Below are positions 105 to 29,284 of a stretch of DNA of 48,787 nucleotides, piece after piece. The position numbers and the translations under genes were made by a program. Numbering within the stretch: position 1 is the stretch's first letter; every line of letters begins with the position of its first letter. The DNA is from Hydrotalea sp. (GTDB lineage Bacteria; Pseudomonadota; Alphaproteobacteria; JASGCL01). The notes under the pieces were generated by a model. The model had not been told where the DNA came from. It did no database searches and saw nothing but the letters and a program-made list of their open reading frames with translations. The DNA is taken from NCBI GenBank assembly GCA_030054115.1, contig JASGCL010000001.1, positions 1-48,787 on the forward strand. The letters are read 5' to 3'.

Positions 105-638
105 ATGCCAGTAAATAAAAAAAATATTAATACCCTTATCACAATAAAGAGTCATGCTTTAGAAGTTCTTAAAGATGACATCAATGAATTAAAAAGCAGG
201 ATAGCTACCGAAACAACCAAATCATATTGGGCATTTGTTTTTACCTTGGGTGCAATATCATTCTTGAAACTTGAATCCATTGCTAAATTATTTTTATTTT
301 ATTTGAACAATATAACTTGTTTTAGTGTTCTATATTTCTTTTGCCTATCTTCGCTTATTTATTTAGGTGGAAAACTATTCTTTCTTTCTATTGATAATAT
401 CAAAAACTCAAAAATTGAAAAAGGATACCCAAATGTTGCTAATATCTCCAGCGTTACAGAAATTAATCATCTTGAATATGTAAATTTATTATTCACAACA
501 TATATTTCTTTTAGAGATGAATTAGAAAAATTATTATCTAAAAAATCAAAAACAGCAAATTACTTATTTGATTTAATAATAAAATTTGCTATATTGCAAC
601 TTATAATAACCCTATGGAGCATCATACATGACCAATAA
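105..638 (+). CDS. AT-rich membrane protein of unknown function
   Basis: A 177-residue protein that I do not recognise. The N-terminal 40 residues are charged and helical, possibly coiled coil. Two hydrophobic segments follow at about residues 41-55 and 60-95, and a third lies close to the C-terminus (about 152-173), so it should be an integral membrane protein with a cytoplasmic helical part. It is much more AT-rich than the preceding fragment and tuf, which suggests horizontal acquisition. Its last 11 bases overlap the start of a 54-residue Asn/Gly/Ser-rich protein (ATG at 628), so the two are probably translationally coupled. The architecture (small membrane protein plus low-complexity partner) recalls accessory or defence modules, but no function can be assigned. 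Confidence 0.75.
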   Translation: MPVNKKNINTLITIKSHALEVLKDDINELKSRIATETTKSYWAFVFTLGAISFLKLESIAKLFLFYLNNITCFSVLYFFCLSSLIYLGGKLFFLSIDNIKNSKIEKGYPNVANISSVTEINHLEYVNLLFTTYISFRDELEKLLSKKSKTANYLFDLIIKFAILQLIITLWSIIHDQ

Positions 639-4700: not shown

Positions 4701-4902
4701 TGCATTCTCCTGCTATTATATATGATAGCGCACAATCGCTATTGCGCACGGCATTGCCCCGGTTTTTTTTTAGCAAATCAAGCCCGGCAAAGCAAAAACA
4801 TTCGGCGGTGATTGCTAAAAAGATAAGGGAAAGACGTTGCAAAAAGTAATAAATCAACCTAAGGCGTATTGCAGATAATAATTAAGGAGGGAGTTGTTAT
4901 CC

Positions 4903-6579
4903 ATGACTCAGTTGCATTTTAGGGGCAAAGAGTTTGTTTATAACCATCATTTGTCTGTTCCTTATTCGGAATTGAAACCTGATGCAAAAAAATCTGTCAT
5001 CACAAAGGGTGGGCAACCACGGCTTGACGACAATTTAATAATTCACGGCGATAATTTACGCGCGCTAAAGGCGTTGTTGCCAAGGTATGAAGGCCGCGTG
5101 AATTGCATTTACATCGACCCGCCCTATAACACGGGGAACGAGGGCTGGAGTTACAACGATAATGTGAACATGCCATATCTGAAAGATTGGCTAAGCAATA
5201 ACCCGGTTAATAACGAAGACATGGAACGGCACGAAAAATGGTGTTGCATGATGTGGCCGCGCCTTACCCTGCTTCACCAATTATTGGCCGATGATGGCGC
5301 AATATTTATTTCCATCGACGATAACGAAGTGCATCATTTACGCATGATGATGGATGAAATTTTTGGTGAGGGGAATTTTGTAGAGTTGATTGCCATTGCT
5401 AGCAATCCTAGAGGCAGAGATTATGGCGGTATAGCAAAAATGCACGATTATGTTCTTGTTTATAAAAAAACACAAAATGCTATATTAAATAATTTACCCG
5501 AACCTGATAAAACTTTTCCTTTTAAAGATGAAGATGGAGATTTTGAAACTAGAGAATTAAGGAATAGAAATATAGCTTTTAATATAAATAATCGTCCGAA
5601 TTTATATTATCCATTTTATATCAATCCTAATTCGCATGATAAAAACAATTTATACAAAATAAGCCTTGAGGCCAAAAAAGGATGGGTTGAAATTTTTCCT
5701 AAAGAATCGCAGGGAATTAAAACGGTTTGGAGATGGGGAATAGAAAAATCTAGTAGGTTTATAAATAAAGAAATTGTTGGTAAAAAAATGAAAGAAGAAG
5801 GTCAATGGCAAATTGTAGAAAAGTATAGAGAAAAAAGTAAGATGGCTCGTTCAATTTGGAGTGATAAGGAAGTTAATAATGAAAAGGGAACACTTTTATT
5901 AAAAGATATTTTTAATAAAAAAATCTTTGACTTTCCTAAACCCGCACAGATGATAAAAAATATAATTCAAATTGCAACCAATAAAAATTCCATCATCCTC
6001 GACTCCTTTGCTGGGTCGGGCACCACCGCCCATGCTGTGTTGGCATTGAATAAGGAAAATGGCGGCGACCGCAAATTTATTTTAATCGAATGCGAAGATT
6101 ACGCCGACAACATAACCGCCGAACGGGTGCGCCGCGTGATAAAGGGCGTGCCCACCGCCAAAAATGAAGAAATAAAAAATGGCTTGGGCGGCGAATTTAC
6201 ATTTTGCGAATTAAGCAATCCGATAGATTTTGATAGCTTGCTGGCCGGCAAAGATTTGCCGTCATATAAAGAATTTGCCGGGCTGGTTTGGAATTTGTTT
6301 GCGGCGACTGCCTTTGACGAAAAACAATGCAATGAAAAAGAATTTATTATCGGTGAAAAAGACGGCGAATTGGTTTTTTGTTTTTATAAACCCAATAAAA
6401 ATTTTTTGTTGTCGCATGAATCCTGCCTTAACACCAATCGCATGGAAGAATTAAGCGCACAGCATCCATCAACCAATATCATGATTTATGCCCCAGCATG
6501 TTTTGTGCCGAACGACATGTTAAAAAAACATAATATAAGATTCGCCCCATTACCATTTGCATTGTTTAAATTGGGGTAA
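4903..6579 (+). CDS. mod: Type III restriction-modification methyltransferase (Mod)
   Basis: An N6-adenine DNA methyltransferase of 558 residues. The DPPY catalytic motif (residues 72-75) comes before the SAM-binding FAGSG motif (about 369-373), which is the beta-class order of type III Mod subunits. Start ATG 4903 is preferred over a TTG at 4894 because AAGGAGG/GGGAG at 4884-4893 then has usable spacing. The part between the two motifs, the target-recognition domain, is strongly AT-rich (about 5390-5990), whereas both flanks have the codon use of the surrounding chromosome. This mosaic suggests exchange of the recognition domain. The res gene starts 5 bases after the stop, so the pair forms an operon that both protects host DNA and guides cleavage. 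Confidence 0.95.
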   Translation: MTQLHFRGKEFVYNHHLSVPYSELKPDAKKSVITKGGQPRLDDNLIIHGDNLRALKALLPRYEGRVNCIYIDPPYNTGNEGWSYNDNVNMPYLKDWLSNNPVNNEDMERHEKWCCMMWPRLTLLHQLLADDGAIFISIDDNEVHHLRMMMDEIFGEGNFVELIAIASNPRGRDYGGIAKMHDYVLVYKKTQNAILNNLPEPDKTFPFKDEDGDFETRELRNRNIAFNINNRPNLYYPFYINPNSHDKNNLYKISLEAKKGWVEIFPKESQGIKTVWRWGIEKSSRFINKEIVGKKMKEEGQWQIVEKYREKSKMARSIWSDKEVNNEKGTLLLKDIFNKKIFDFPKPAQMIKNIIQIATNKNSIILDSFAGSGTTAHAVLALNKENGGDRKFILIECEDYADNITAERVRRVIKGVPTAKNEEIKNGLGGEFTFCELSNPIDFDSLLAGKDLPSYKEFAGLVWNLFAATAFDEKQCNEKEFIIGEKDGELVFCFYKPNKNFLLSHESCLNTNRMEELSAQHPSTNIMIYAPACFVPNDMLKKHNIRFAPLPFALFKLG

Positions 6580-6584
6580 CCGCC

Positions 6585-9143
6585 ATGTTTGAACATTTTG
6601 AATTAAAAGAATATCAAACAAATGCCCTTAATTTGTTTGAACATTATTTGGAAAAATTGGCAACTACCCGCGTTGATTATTTGGAACAGCAGGAGAAATT
6701 GGCAAAGGCTGGTGTCAAGGCGACGCTGGACCATGATTGGACCGAAAAAGCATTTAGAGAGGTTTGCAATGAAAAATTCACCGCGCGCAAGGACGCGTTT
6801 GGTTTATCCATACCCGCGGTTTGTTATAAAGTGCCGACCGGTGGCGGCAAGACATTGCTGGCGACCCTGTCGGTGATTAAAATTTTTTACCATTATATCA
6901 ATCAACAAAATGGTTTTGTTTTGTGGATAGTGCCGAACGAAGCAATCTACAGCCAAACATTAAAAACATTAAAAGATAACGAACACCCCTATCGCAAATT
7001 TTTAAACCCAGCGTTCCGTGGCAAGGTTAGAATTTTAACCAAGGAAGATAGAATAACCAGACAAATGGTAGATGAAAATTTGTGCATCATGGTGATGATG
7101 TTGCAATCAAGCAATCGCGAAACGAAAGAAACTTTAAAAGTTTTCAAGGCGCGGGGTGATTATCATGGATTCTTCCCGCTTGAAAGCGATTATCAGGCCA
7201 ACAAATCGTTGTTAGAAAAAATACCAAACTTAGATATTCATGGTAGCAATTTTATACCGATAATCAAAAATTCATTGGGTAATATGTTGCGCATGATAAG
7301 GCCGGTTATCGTGATGGACGAACAGCATAAGGCAACATCTATCAAGGCGACAAAAACATTGGAAACATTTAACCCAAAATTTATTTTGGAATTATCCGCC
7401 ACGCCCCAAGATTATAAATTTGAAAACGGCGCGACGCAATCGCCAAATGAATTGGTTAAAATCACCGGTAGCCAATTATTGCGCGAGGGCATGATTAAAA
7501 TTCCTATCAATGTTAAAGTGAGCAACGATGAGAAATGGCAAGATATTTTACGGCAATCGCTTGATAAATTAAATGATTTGGCAGAAAAATCGAAACAACA
7601 TTTTGCCGATACCAGTCGGATTATCCGACCAATAATGTTGGTGCAGGTCGAGCGCACCGGTGCAGACCAACGCGATGGCAAAGTGATTCATGCCGAGGAT
7701 GCGAAAGAACAGCTATTGAAATTGGGATTAAAAGAGAACGAAATTAAAATAAAATCTGCCAATAATAATGAATTGGAAAACATCGACCTGTTGGCGGCGA
7801 ATTGCGCGGTGCGTGCCATCATTACAAAATCGGCATTGCAGGAAGGGTGGGATTGCCCATTTGCCTATATTTTGGTTAGTTTATCATCGAGCAAAAGCCT
7901 GACCGCCATTACGCAATTATTGGGGCGGGTGTTGCGCCAACCCCATGCGACAAAATCAAAAGTTGAAGAATTAAATCAAAGTTATGTTTTTTGCTTACAT
8001 AAAGAAACCAACGACCTTATCAAAAAAATAAAATCATCGCTGGAAAATGAGGGGCTGGGTGATGTTGCCTATCAAATAAATGTAGCGAATGATGATGATA
8101 ATTCGTTGCTGGAATATATTACAATCAAAAGACGCGATAAATTTAAAAATACAAAAATTGTTTTACCAAATGTTGTTTGGACGGGCGATAAAGAACCGCG
8201 TGCATTGCAATATGAATCTGACATTTTAGCATATATCGATTGGCTAAAAATTGACATGCAGGAAATTGCTAATTTTATTTCGCCTTACAATTCGCAAGCT
8301 CAAAATTATACGATTTCTTTTGGTAATGATTTACTTAAGAATGATACGATAGAGGGCAGGTTGAAAGCAGAAGAATTAAAAAAGGATTTTATAATTTCTG
8401 ATGCGGTGCGCGCCATCAATGACATTATTTTGAATCCATGGGTAGGTTATGAATTGGTCAAGAATTTACAAATCGCCTTATTAAAAAAATGGACAAGGGA
8501 ACAAATTGACACGCAATATTTTAATATCATCAAACAATTTAGAACATCACTGATTAAAAAATCTGATGAACAAGCAGAAATATATTTCAAAGAAAATCTA
8601 AAAAATGGAAAAATAACTTTTCATTTGCGAAGTGATGATTTGCTTGGTTGGAGCATGCCCTATGCAATAAAATCTAAAAAAGATGGAAAGTTAATTTTAA
8701 GAAATGATTCTAAGCCGGTGCAAAATAGTTTGTTCGACAATCCAATTTTTGATGATGGGTTTAATGATGCTGAAGAAGCCGTTGCCGTTATGTTAGATGA
8801 GCAAGTTAACTGGTGGTTTAGAAATTGCGTTGAAGATGGGCATTATCATTTGCAAGGGTGGCGAAAGGAACGAGTCTATCCTGATTTTATATTTTTTCTT
8901 AATAGCGCAAGAAATGAAATTTGTGTGTGGGAAGGCAAGGGTAATCATTTGGCAGGAAATGAAGATACGGAGTATAAGACAAAACTTATGGAAATGGTTA
9001 GCACCAATTTTTCTTTTGAGAGAGTATCATCAATAGGAAAGCTTGATATTGATAGCAGTAACGGCAATAAAGTTTCTTGTAAGATGGTTCTTTATAGCAA
9101 TTTTGAAAAAACACTAAATAATTACGCGCCATCGCCTCTATAA
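6585..9143 (+). CDS. res: Type III restriction endonuclease subunit (Res)
   Basis: An SF2 helicase-nuclease of 852 residues that cleaves DNA when in complex with Mod. Helicase motifs are clear: Walker A PTGGGKT at 84-90, motif II DEQH at 245-248, motif III SATP at 271-274, and motif VI QLLGRVLRQP from 444. The C-terminal PD-(D/E)xK nuclease site reads PD at 766-767 and E-G-K at 783-785. All catalytic residues appear intact, so the enzyme should be active. The last third is more AT-rich than the first two thirds. It has the usual family length and is cotranscribed with mod. Confidence 0.95.
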   Translation: MFEHFELKEYQTNALNLFEHYLEKLATTRVDYLEQQEKLAKAGVKATLDHDWTEKAFREVCNEKFTARKDAFGLSIPAVCYKVPTGGGKTLLATLSVIKIFYHYINQQNGFVLWIVPNEAIYSQTLKTLKDNEHPYRKFLNPAFRGKVRILTKEDRITRQMVDENLCIMVMMLQSSNRETKETLKVFKARGDYHGFFPLESDYQANKSLLEKIPNLDIHGSNFIPIIKNSLGNMLRMIRPVIVMDEQHKATSIKATKTLETFNPKFILELSATPQDYKFENGATQSPNELVKITGSQLLREGMIKIPINVKVSNDEKWQDILRQSLDKLNDLAEKSKQHFADTSRIIRPIMLVQVERTGADQRDGKVIHAEDAKEQLLKLGLKENEIKIKSANNNELENIDLLAANCAVRAIITKSALQEGWDCPFAYILVSLSSSKSLTAITQLLGRVLRQPHATKSKVEELNQSYVFCLHKETNDLIKKIKSSLENEGLGDVAYQINVANDDDNSLLEYITIKRRDKFKNTKIVLPNVVWTGDKEPRALQYESDILAYIDWLKIDMQEIANFISPYNSQAQNYTISFGNDLLKNDTIEGRLKAEELKKDFIISDAVRAINDIILNPWVGYELVKNLQIALLKKWTREQIDTQYFNIIKQFRTSLIKKSDEQAEIYFKENLKNGKITFHLRSDDLLGWSMPYAIKSKKDGKLILRNDSKPVQNSLFDNPIFDDGFNDAEEAVAVMLDEQVNWWFRNCVEDGHYHLQGWRKERVYPDFIFFLNSARNEICVWEGKGNHLAGNEDTEYKTKLMEMVSTNFSFERVSSIGKLDIDSSNGNKVSCKMVLYSNFEKTLNNYAPSPL

Positions 9144-20695: not shown

Positions 20696-21349
20696 TTATC
20701 CTCTGGCGTCTTTTTCTTCCTCGGTGTTCCTAACCTGGTTGATAAAGTAGCGCAAAATATCCTTGCTGGCGATAGTTTGCCGTGGGGTTTGACCTGGGGT
20801 GATGGTTACTCGTTGCGCCTTTTCTATCATTTTGGTTTTTAAACCATTTTCATTATCCGTCATCTGGGGTTCGCGCTCCAACTTTGGATAATTTACTATG
20901 CCATCGCCATTAAGATTAGTACTGTCTTCTAATTTTTTTGCCAGGGTCATGACCTCGACCAAAATAGCAAGAAAATCAAAAGACAATTTATCACACAGGT
21001 CGCTCATTGTATCGAGAGTCAGGGAGCTTTTACCCGCCATGGTGCGACTCCAGGTTGGTTGGCTGACGCCAACCGTGCGCAATACCAATTGGAATTTTTG
21101 CCTGATAGCTTTGCCGTTTTGACCCGGGGGCGATTTCTGCAAAAGCCTTTGCGTTACCACCTGGCCAAAAATTTGCGACAGAGTGAAGGACACCACCGCG
21201 GGTTCGATAAATAACGCGCGATGTGGTATAGGCGACTCATCGCGATTGGTGCTATCATATAAGTTATCCCCTAAATTGTCCCGTGTTTGGTCCCAAGATG
21301 CGTCCCGCGCTTCATCCCGGCCCGTAAATGCCACGTCATGGTTTTTCAT
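20696..21349 (-). CDS. XRE-like helix-turn-helix protein
   Basis: 217 residues. A helix-turn-helix can be read around residues 82-130, with VSQPTWSRTMAG followed by LTLDTMSDLCDKL, the order seen in Cro/C1-type domains. The flanks are hydrophilic and probably disordered: an Asp/Arg/Asn-rich N-terminus and a charged tail ending in EEEKDARG. It is divergent from hemW, and a palindrome with a central ATTATAAT lies 72 bases before its start, a candidate autoregulatory operator. Its target is unknown; the nearby ABC transporter operon on the same strand is one possibility. Confidence 0.65.
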   Translation of the reverse strand: MKNHDVAFTGRDEARDASWDQTRDNLGDNLYDSTNRDESPIPHRALFIEPAVVSFTLSQIFGQVVTQRLLQKSPPGQNGKAIRQKFQLVLRTVGVSQPTWSRTMAGKSSLTLDTMSDLCDKLSFDFLAILVEVMTLAKKLEDSTNLNGDGIVNYPKLEREPQMTDNENGLKTKMIEKAQRVTITPGQTPRQTIASKDILRYFINQVRNTEEEKDARG

Positions 21350-27905: not shown

Positions 27906-29210
27906 TTATAACGCTCCTTTTTCCTTTTTTATTTGTTTTTCAAATTCTTTTATCTGATTAAAAACTTCTTCAATATCATCGGTCGCAACCCATTCATAAA
28001 GAGATTGATAATGGTTATGAATCATTGTTTCGATTTCGATATTAAATGGTGTTTGATAAGCTTTCTCTAATGTAAAACCTCGCTTCGGATCGCTGGTTTG
28101 ATAATTGTTTAAGCGCGCTTTAGGATCTTTTGCAACGCCAACCTTTAATTGGCCTTTATAAGCTTTATTAGAAATAATGTAAATATAACCTGCAATCGCA
28201 CCACCTGCACCACCATCGGTTCTTTTTGGCGGCGCGGTGCTATCGTGGATTTCTTTATTCCAATCCATAATTGTATGTTTTTCTTTGTTTAACCGTTCCT
28301 TTACCAACTCATAGGCTTTATAACTAACATCAATGCCAACCCAGCGGCGACCCAACCGTTCAGCCGCCACACAAGCGGTAGCGCAACCACAAAACGGGTC
28401 AAGCACCATATCACCTTCATTGCTACTAGCCTTAATAATCCTTTCCAACAAAATAAGAGGCTTTTGCGTTGGATAACCCGTGCGCTCTTTCGCCGTTGAG
28501 CCAATGGGTGGAATCTCCCACCAATCGCCTGTTTTAACACCTCGGCTTTCATCTTCAAGAAAAACTTTATACCTATTTCCCTTGACAGTATGCCATCGCC
28601 ATCTCTTGCCGGTTTCTTCGTCTGTATAACCATAATCTTTTTTTATCCACTCGCCGTAGGGATCGTATTGTGTATTAAAAACAGGAGCATCTGACTTAGC
28701 ATAATATAAAATAATATCATGTAGCTTTTGGAATTTGTTTGCTACCGCCGTCCAGCGTTTATAAGCCCAAATAACCTCATTTCTAAAATTCTTTTCACCG
28801 AAAATACAATCCAGCACCAATTTTAAATAATGGCTCATCGTTGGATCGCAATGTAAATAAACACTGCCCGTTTCTTTTAACACGCGATGAATTTCTATCA
28901 ATCGAATGGCCATATAAACACAATAGCAATAATTATATTTATTGCTGAATTCTTTTATACCCAGCAATAAAGAATAAAGCTGATAATTCTCGGCCTCGAT
29001 TTCTTTAACCCACTCATCCTTAACATCTTCCTCGCTAAAAATATCTCGGAACTCAGCACCTTCAGCACTACTTCCTATCGGCGCGGTAAAAATTTTCTTT
29101 TTATTAAAAGGCGGGTCAAGATAAACTAAATCTATGCAATTTGAATTAATGCCACGCAATATATCGATATTATCATGACAAAAAACAGTGCGATTTTTTA
29201 CATTCAACAT
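27906..29210 (-). CDS. DNA adenine methyltransferase fused to a GIY-YIG-like domain
   Basis: 434 residues from ATG 29210, chosen because AGGA lies about 10 bases before it; a TTG at 29228 is less likely. Residues 1-325 are a beta-class methyltransferase: DPPF at 32-35 precedes DPFCGCAT at 271-278, with TGYPTQKP between them as in known N6-adenine or N4-cytosine enzymes. From 341 onward, GYIYIISN, LKVGVAKDPKARL and a later FNIEIETMIHNHY resemble GIY-YIG nucleases of the T5orf172/Mug113 type, with Arg366 and a downstream Glu in suitable places. It is strongly AT-rich and lies between two genes of a corrinoid operon, so it looks recently acquired. The stop is 3 bases before the RACo-like start. 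Confidence 0.88.
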   Translation of the reverse strand: MLNVKNRTVFCHDNIDILRGINSNCIDLVYLDPPFNKKKIFTAPIGSSAEGAEFRDIFSEEDVKDEWVKEIEAENYQLYSLLLGIKEFSNKYNYCYCVYMAIRLIEIHRVLKETGSVYLHCDPTMSHYLKLVLDCIFGEKNFRNEVIWAYKRWTAVANKFQKLHDIILYYAKSDAPVFNTQYDPYGEWIKKDYGYTDEETGKRWRWHTVKGNRYKVFLEDESRGVKTGDWWEIPPIGSTAKERTGYPTQKPLILLERIIKASSNEGDMVLDPFCGCATACVAAERLGRRWVGIDVSYKAYELVKERLNKEKHTIMDWNKEIHDSTAPPKRTDGGAGGAIAGYIYIISNKAYKGQLKVGVAKDPKARLNNYQTSDPKRGFTLEKAYQTPFNIEIETMIHNHYQSLYEWVATDDIEEVFNQIKEFEKQIKKEKGAL

Positions 29211-29284
29211 AATTTGGATTCCTAGCAACTTTCGCCATTATATAAAAGGAATTTTTATAAGTCATGCAACGAAGCGCAGAAACA

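What the first reader, a model, noticed from the sequence alone, without database searches (positions are those of the whole stretch)
5390..5990. Foreign target-recognition domain inside the type III methyltransferase
Bases 5390-5990 of mod are strongly AT-rich with long A/T runs, while the DPPY side and the FAGSG side have host-like composition. This is what recombinational replacement of the recognition domain would leave, so DNA specificity probably changed recently.
Basis: partly seen in the sequence, partly recalled or inferred. Interest (0 to 1): 0.5.

Follow-up and report, generated by a model that had tools for sequence, protein, structure and literature searches.

The report
Swapped recognition domain in DNA methyltransferase
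A bacterial defence enzyme that marks DNA carries a target-reading middle part of different ancestry from the rest of the protein, a known way for such enzymes to change which DNA sequence they recognise; low G+C alone does not prove it, because most relatives show that too.

Summary
The AT-rich block is real. Composition alone is weak evidence: 97 of 104 relatives have an AT-shifted recognition domain (TRD), while their equally variable C-terminal domain does not. Independent ancestry evidence supports the swap. The closest flank relative (L010, another alphaproteobacterial MAG) is 88%/79% identical on the two sides but has an unrelated TRD; blastn identity stops at 5371 and resumes at 5951. 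The window's TRD is closest to TRDs of plasmid-borne Bacillota Mods (52%, 49%) whose flanks belong to another subfamily. Trees and AU tests agree. 'Recent' is not shown: the pair's flanks differ at about half of four-fold sites, no nearer relative was found, and which of the two changed is unproven. En-bloc TRD replacement in type III Mods is published, including a 28% GC domain between 40% GC sides (PMC3311624). New member of a known kind.

The parts
4903..6579 (+). mod, type III methyltransferase (558 aa from ATG 4903; the listed ORF starts at TTG 4894 = residue 1 in my numbering)
   Evidence: PF01555 E 2.5e-33; PADLOC MTase_III E 4e-151; relatives begin at the ATG
5116..5127 (+). DPPY catalytic motif IV (residues 75-78)
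   Evidence: translation; invariant in 32 aligned Mods
5404..5988 (+). AT-rich block = TRD cassette by composition (residues 171-365); 2-lnL limits: left residue 153-187, right 342-367
   Evidence: GC3 scan
5372..5950 (+). TRD cassette by ancestry: nucleotide identity to L010/L040 ends at 5371 and resumes at 5951; TRD resembles Bacillota plasmid Mods and Mbo45V
   Evidence: blastn; segment identities; profile match to 7dsu E 3.6e-29
6007..6021 (+). FAGSG AdoMet-binding motif I (residues 372-376)
   Evidence: translation; alignment
6585..9143 (+). res, helicase-nuclease partner (852 aa)
   Evidence: PF04851 E 5e-15; PADLOC REase_III E 8e-168
7950..9143 (+). second AT-rich stretch, C-terminal half of res (GC3 0.28 against 0.45 before it)
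   Evidence: one-breakpoint scan; GC3 drop ranks 1 of 71 res genes

Best explanation
This is the Mod subunit of a type III restriction-modification pair. Its recognition cassette (about residues 160-350, between the DPPY side and the FAGSG side) has a different ancestry from its catalytic flanks. Shown: flanks and cassette have different nearest relatives; the breakpoints from composition and from identity coincide within tens of bases; the cassette belongs to a TRD type also found in Mods of another subfamily on Bacillota plasmids, in gammaproteobacteria and in Mycoplasma (Mbo45V; the source organism is recalled). Inferred: an AT-rich cassette was swapped in by recombination at the conserved catalytic-motif sequences on either side, and the enzyme now methylates, and Res restricts, a different sequence from its L010 sister. 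The date and the direct donor are unknown.
For: Window vs L010: residues 46-165 88%, TRD 26% in a forced alignment (blastp E 0.25, not alike), residues 346-440 79%; blastn blocks 4918-5371 at 77.8% and 5951-6209 at 74.6%, nothing between. TRD vs L. salivarius plasmid Mod 52% and Exiguobacterium 49%, with flanks of 50-51% (46-165) and 37% (346-440), and 21% and 18-23% at the two ends. Flank tree: window+L010 99/97; TRD tree: window in a set of six with Lsal3, Exig, Lmali, L122, L149, 98/95. AU: TRD data reject window+L122 (p 3e-5) and the flank subfamily as a clade (p 2e-13); flank data reject window+Lsal3+Exig (p 3e-10). L010's TRD type is the common one in the subfamily (L110 55%, dozens at 30-45%), which favours the window as the changed copy. 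GC3 break at 5404-5988.
Against: Low GC3 in the TRD is a family trait (97 of 104), so it does not date or prove import here. Three of the nearer flank relatives (L122, L123, L124) carry distant members of the same broad TRD type, so an older gain with loss in L010 is not excluded; in the TRD tree without L031 the window+Lsal3+Exig grouping itself is weak (58/26). No donor above 53% identity was found. Clades for AU tests were named after seeing the trees. res shows a similar AT shift with no matching ancestry conflict found.
Confidence: 0.85

Rival explanations
1. The window kept an old TRD and L010 is the copy that was replaced; the mod's specificity did not change on the window's own branch.
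For: L122, next nearest in the flank tree, shares the broad TRD type at 49%.
Against: TRD data reject window+L122 as a clade (p 3e-5); L122's TRD pairs with L149 of another subfamily (98/95); L010's TRD type is the commonest in the subfamily.
Confidence: 0.25
2. No swap: TRDs simply evolve fast, and AT-rich codons in this domain are a domain-level property (expression, folding or DNA-level selection).
For: 97 of 104 relatives have lower codon-corrected GC3 in the TRD, also in AT-rich hosts (mean 0.25 vs 0.33); conserved TRD columns are as low as variable ones.
Against: Fast evolution would not make the TRD resemble other subfamilies' TRDs better than its own sister's, nor leave sharp edges in nucleotide identity.
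Confidence: 0.08
3. The whole mod-res operon is foreign, with patchy AT-content inherited from its source; the TRD block is part of that patchiness.
For: mod 37.7% and res 37.1% GC against about 51% in host genes; L010's mod lies next to an ORF that reads like acetolactate synthase, a different place.
Against: Explains the operon but not the TRD-flank ancestry conflict. Both can hold: an imported operon with a swapped TRD.
Confidence: 0.15

Closest known systems
modA alleles of Neisseria and Haemophilus (Gawthorne et al. 2012, PMC3311624; abstract, sections 9, 11, 12 and found passages read)
   Same: En-bloc exchange of the type III recognition domain between Mod backbones and across species (matches of 50-73% identity to other genera); modA12 has a 28% GC domain between 40% GC sides.
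   Different: Those are phase-variable genes in strains with many close alleles, so exchange is seen between near-identical flanks; here flanks of the nearest pair are 79-88% identical. Phase variation was not examined here.
Type III TRD movement between non-orthologous Mods in Helicobacter pylori (work cited as ref. 19 in PMC3983042; only passages of PMC3983042 read)
   Different: Here across phyla and seen from single genomes rather than within one species.
Mbo45V Mod (PDB 7dsu), M.EcoP15I (4zcf) and the Mod 6k0w
   Same: Fold of the whole Mod (VIA Z 31-33, rmsd 6.6/3.7/12.4, aligned 379/327/466 for 6k0w_B/7dsu_B/4zcf_A); the Mbo45V TRD is a relative of the window's TRD (profile E 3.6e-29).
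   Different: By sequence the whole protein is closer to its own subfamily than to these; recognition sequence of the window's enzyme unknown.

Membership tests
Type III Mod (beta-class amino-methyltransferase) | Motif order DPPY, then TRD, then FxGxG, in one protein | tested here: met
   DPPY residues 75-78, FAGSG 372-376 with the TRD between; domain order as read for EcoP15I in PMC4490356
Type III Mod (beta-class amino-methyltransferase) | Sequence and fold of type III Mods | tested here: met
   PADLOC MTase_III E 4e-151; 7dsu, 6k0w, 4zcf best by sequence and fold
Type III restriction-modification system | Adjacent res with helicase motor | tested here: met
   res starts 5 bases after mod; ResIII E 5e-15, REase_III E 8e-168; PTGGGKT and DEQH visible in the translation
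Type III restriction-modification system | PD-(D/E)XK nuclease site at the end of Res | not tested
   no call made for it
TRD exchange between Mod backbones | TRD and flanks with conflicting trees | tested here: met
TRD exchange between Mod backbones | Sharp identity edges at the conserved motifs beside the TRD | tested here: met
TRD exchange between Mod backbones | Changed methylation motif | not testable with these tools
   needs long-read methylome data
Phasevarion-associated mod | Simple-sequence repeat tract giving ON/OFF switching | not tested
   only runs of A or T were listed, longest 7; tandem repeats were not searched

The most novel reading that the evidence does not exclude
Recognition domains of this type III Mod family form a shared pool that moves across phyla and keeps a domain-wide AT shift at synonymous sites in hosts of every G+C content, so that codon use alone marks the exchangeable cassette in nearly every member (97 of 104; 102 of 105 against another reference). 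Either donors are mostly AT-rich mobile elements, or AT-rich DNA in the cassette is itself selected.
Probability: 0.35. Interest if true: 0.5.

Novelty: new member of a known kind. Interest (0 to 1): 0.33.

Why it matters
It is a clear cross-phylum example of how a restriction-modification system gets a new DNA specificity by changing one cassette while keeping its catalytic frame. It also carries a warning for genome readers: an AT-rich centre in a mod gene is the family norm and should not by itself be read as recent import. The TRD-limited synonymous AT shift across the family is a testable general pattern.

Tried and rejected
Viral contigs as donor: a P0001 scan gave 3 loci, a TRD scan gave none, and a TRD-alignment scan gave 9 loci at 23-28% identity; none is a close donor. 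Phages: 1 of 50,697 records matched the TRD, at 33%. Plasmids: 26 of 72,556 records matched, best 53%. Genomes: 7 of 398 phylum genomes had a TRD match at E 1e-12, the window's own genome among them.

Amino-acid make-up as the cause of low GC: rejected for the third position; it adds in part here (GC1/2 drop 0.071 against a mean of -0.002, sd 0.026, in 82 relatives). Low conservation as the cause of low GC3: rejected, since conserved TRD columns are as low (-0.162) as variable ones (-0.157) and variable flank or C-terminal columns are not (-0.037, +0.038). Swap in res: identity falls in its C half against all 11 relatives compared, as is usual for this gene, and no ancestry conflict was seen; its AT shift is left unexplained.

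Rows dropped: the TRD tree used 27 of 42 blastp rows; duplicates (L147, L007, L009, L148, L154, L153) and weak matches (L116, L045, L050, L042, L060, L041, L047, L011, L056) were left out, and L010 was put in the flank tree only because its TRD is not alike. L031 was left out of the AU tests as a long branch. L040, L054, L071, L121 and L087 were left out of the large alignment as duplicates or fragments; L144 and L145 were second stretches of loci already in. Three window ORFs (105-638, 20696-21349, 27906-29228) were left out of the host codon table. AlphaFold model: mean pLDDT 76, pTM 0.65, used only for fold, not for TRD boundaries. No paper was found for the word Mbo45V.

Full report
What is there. 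The window holds a two-gene operon, mod (ORF from TTG 4894, likely start ATG 4903, to 6579) and res (6585-9143), between a sulfatase-like gene and a phosphatidylserine decarboxylase-like gene (names from reading the translations, not from a search). mod is a type III methyltransferase and res a type III restriction subunit. The gene lies in a 1.68 Mb, 91-contig genome.

The observation. GC is 0.433, 0.285 and 0.424 in 4894-5389, 5390-5990 and 5991-6579. A two-breakpoint scan of third codon positions finds residues 171-365 (5404-5988), 2dlnL 56.0 against at most 22.3 in 200 simulations of the same protein with uniform codon use. Given the amino acids, GC3 is 0.14 observed against 0.44 expected from mod's own catalytic flanks and 0.51 from 33 host CDS. 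The flanks are near host-like (z -2.3 and -1.1), but mod's last 120 codons (z -4.1) and res (z -5.2, -2.8 and -12.0 for its three parts) are AT-shifted against the host, so the operon as a whole looks acquired. A/T runs are also common 3' of the block.

How unusual is it? I aligned the window's Mod with relatives from genome contigs, class genomes and viral contigs. In 97 of 104 relatives codon-corrected GC3 is lower in the TRD than in the protein's own flanks (mean -0.134; 60 with z below -3). The C-terminal domain, also variable, shows no such drop (mean +0.068, 18 of 102 negative). The window is 5th of 105 by z and 6th by size. The drop occurs in conserved and variable TRD columns alike and hardly in variable flank columns, and in hosts from AT-rich to GC-rich (TRD GC3 = 0.74 x flank + 0.01, r 0.80, n 104). 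The window lies 2.4 residual standard deviations below that line. Thus an AT-rich centre is the family norm; the window is an extreme case. The rows are related to each other, so these counts are not independent trials.

Ancestry. The nearest flank relative is L010 (= L040, a 3.5 kb contig of an alphaproteobacterial MAG): residues 46-165 88%, 346-440 79%, but the TRDs are not detectably alike (blastp E 0.25). blastn gives two blocks, 4918-5371 and 5951-6209, and nothing between. The window's TRD finds its best matches in Mods on Bacillota plasmids, Ligilactobacillus salivarius 52% and Exiguobacterium 49%, while those proteins' flanks are 50-51% (residues 46-165), 37% (346-440) and about 20% at both ends. 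In sliding 20-residue windows identity to L010 falls from 0.85-0.90 to 0.2 around residues 152-165 and returns around 345-365; identity to the L. salivarius Mod stays higher inside, and GC3 falls and rises at about the same places.

Trees. The flank tree (28 rows) pairs the window with L010 (99/97). The TRD tree (27 rows) puts the window with Lsal3, Exig, Lmali, L122 and L149 (98/95), and other cross-subfamily groupings appear, such as L122+L149 and Bbad with L039/L049/L150/Kaer. AU tests without the long row L031: TRD data reject window+L122 (p 3e-5) and the flank subfamily (p 2e-13); flank data reject window+Lsal3+Exig (p 3e-10), window+L122 (p 4e-4) and the six-row TRD clade (p 6e-74). Clades were named after the trees were seen, so the p-values are optimistic. 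Across the family, of 16 pairs with flank identity of 0.85 or more, 11 have alike TRDs (E below 1e-15 over more than 100 residues), 3 (window-L010, L041-L044, L042-L044) do not (E above 1e-5), and 2 lie between.

Direction and age. L010's TRD type is the common one in the subfamily (L110 55%, dozens at 30-45%), which favours the window as the changed copy, but other flank neighbours carry distant members of the window's TRD type, so direction is not settled. Window and L010 agree at a fraction of 0.57 of 21 four-fold sites in residues 46-165 and 0.52 of 25 in 346-440. That is an old divergence and only an upper bound on the swap's age. 'Recent' is therefore not shown.

Mechanism. In EcoP15I the TRD is an insert between the DPPY-side and AdoMet-side motifs of the methyltransferase domain (PMC4490356, passages read). 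Here the edges lie in the conserved stretch before motif VIII and at the FPKP/motif X stretch (placing of the motif numbers recalled, their order as read in PMC4490356). Recombination at such conserved stretches is the mechanism reported for type III TRD movement between non-orthologous Mods (passage of PMC3983042), and en-bloc TRD replacement, with a 28% GC domain between 40% GC sides in modA12, is described in PMC3311624 (sections read; GC passage). The window is best read as another case, across phyla. Changed specificity is inferred, not shown.

Novelty. The kind of event is known. What I did not find in print is the family-wide, TRD-limited synonymous AT shift; the searches were (listings only, except the papers named above), in a library that lacks most subscription journals.

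Noticed in passing
window 7950-9143: C-terminal half of res is AT-rich (GC3 0.28 against 0.45 before it); the drop is the largest of 71 res genes compared, without an ancestry conflict seen.
   Followed up: partly
L155 197-6110: Ligilactobacillus salivarius plasmid NZ_CP020859.1 has three mod genes in tandem before one res, with different TRDs: a possible multi-specificity array.
   Followed up: no
L164 1162-3110: In another L. salivarius plasmid (NZ_CP027645.1) the corresponding region is annotated as two shorter methyltransferase genes, perhaps a broken or fused mod.
   Followed up: no
window 105-638: 177-aa ORF of 25.5% GC at the contig edge, no match in Pfam, NCBIfam or PADLOC at E 0.001.
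   Followed up: no
window 27906-29228: A second DNA methyltransferase gene of low GC (0.376) among host-like genes; its C-terminal part looks like a separate domain.
   Followed up: no
own genome, 11 places: Eleven N6/N4 methyltransferase matches in a 1.68 Mb genome, including another type III-like Mod on contig C22 (L031/L183), also with low TRD GC3 (0.23).
   Followed up: partly
relatives of mod, 104 loci: TRD-limited drop of synonymous GC across the Mod family, absent from the C-terminal domain.
   Followed up: partly
L041, L042, L044: Poribacteria Mods with 87-88% identical flanks have unlike TRDs (L044 against L041 and L042), a second likely swap.
   Followed up: no
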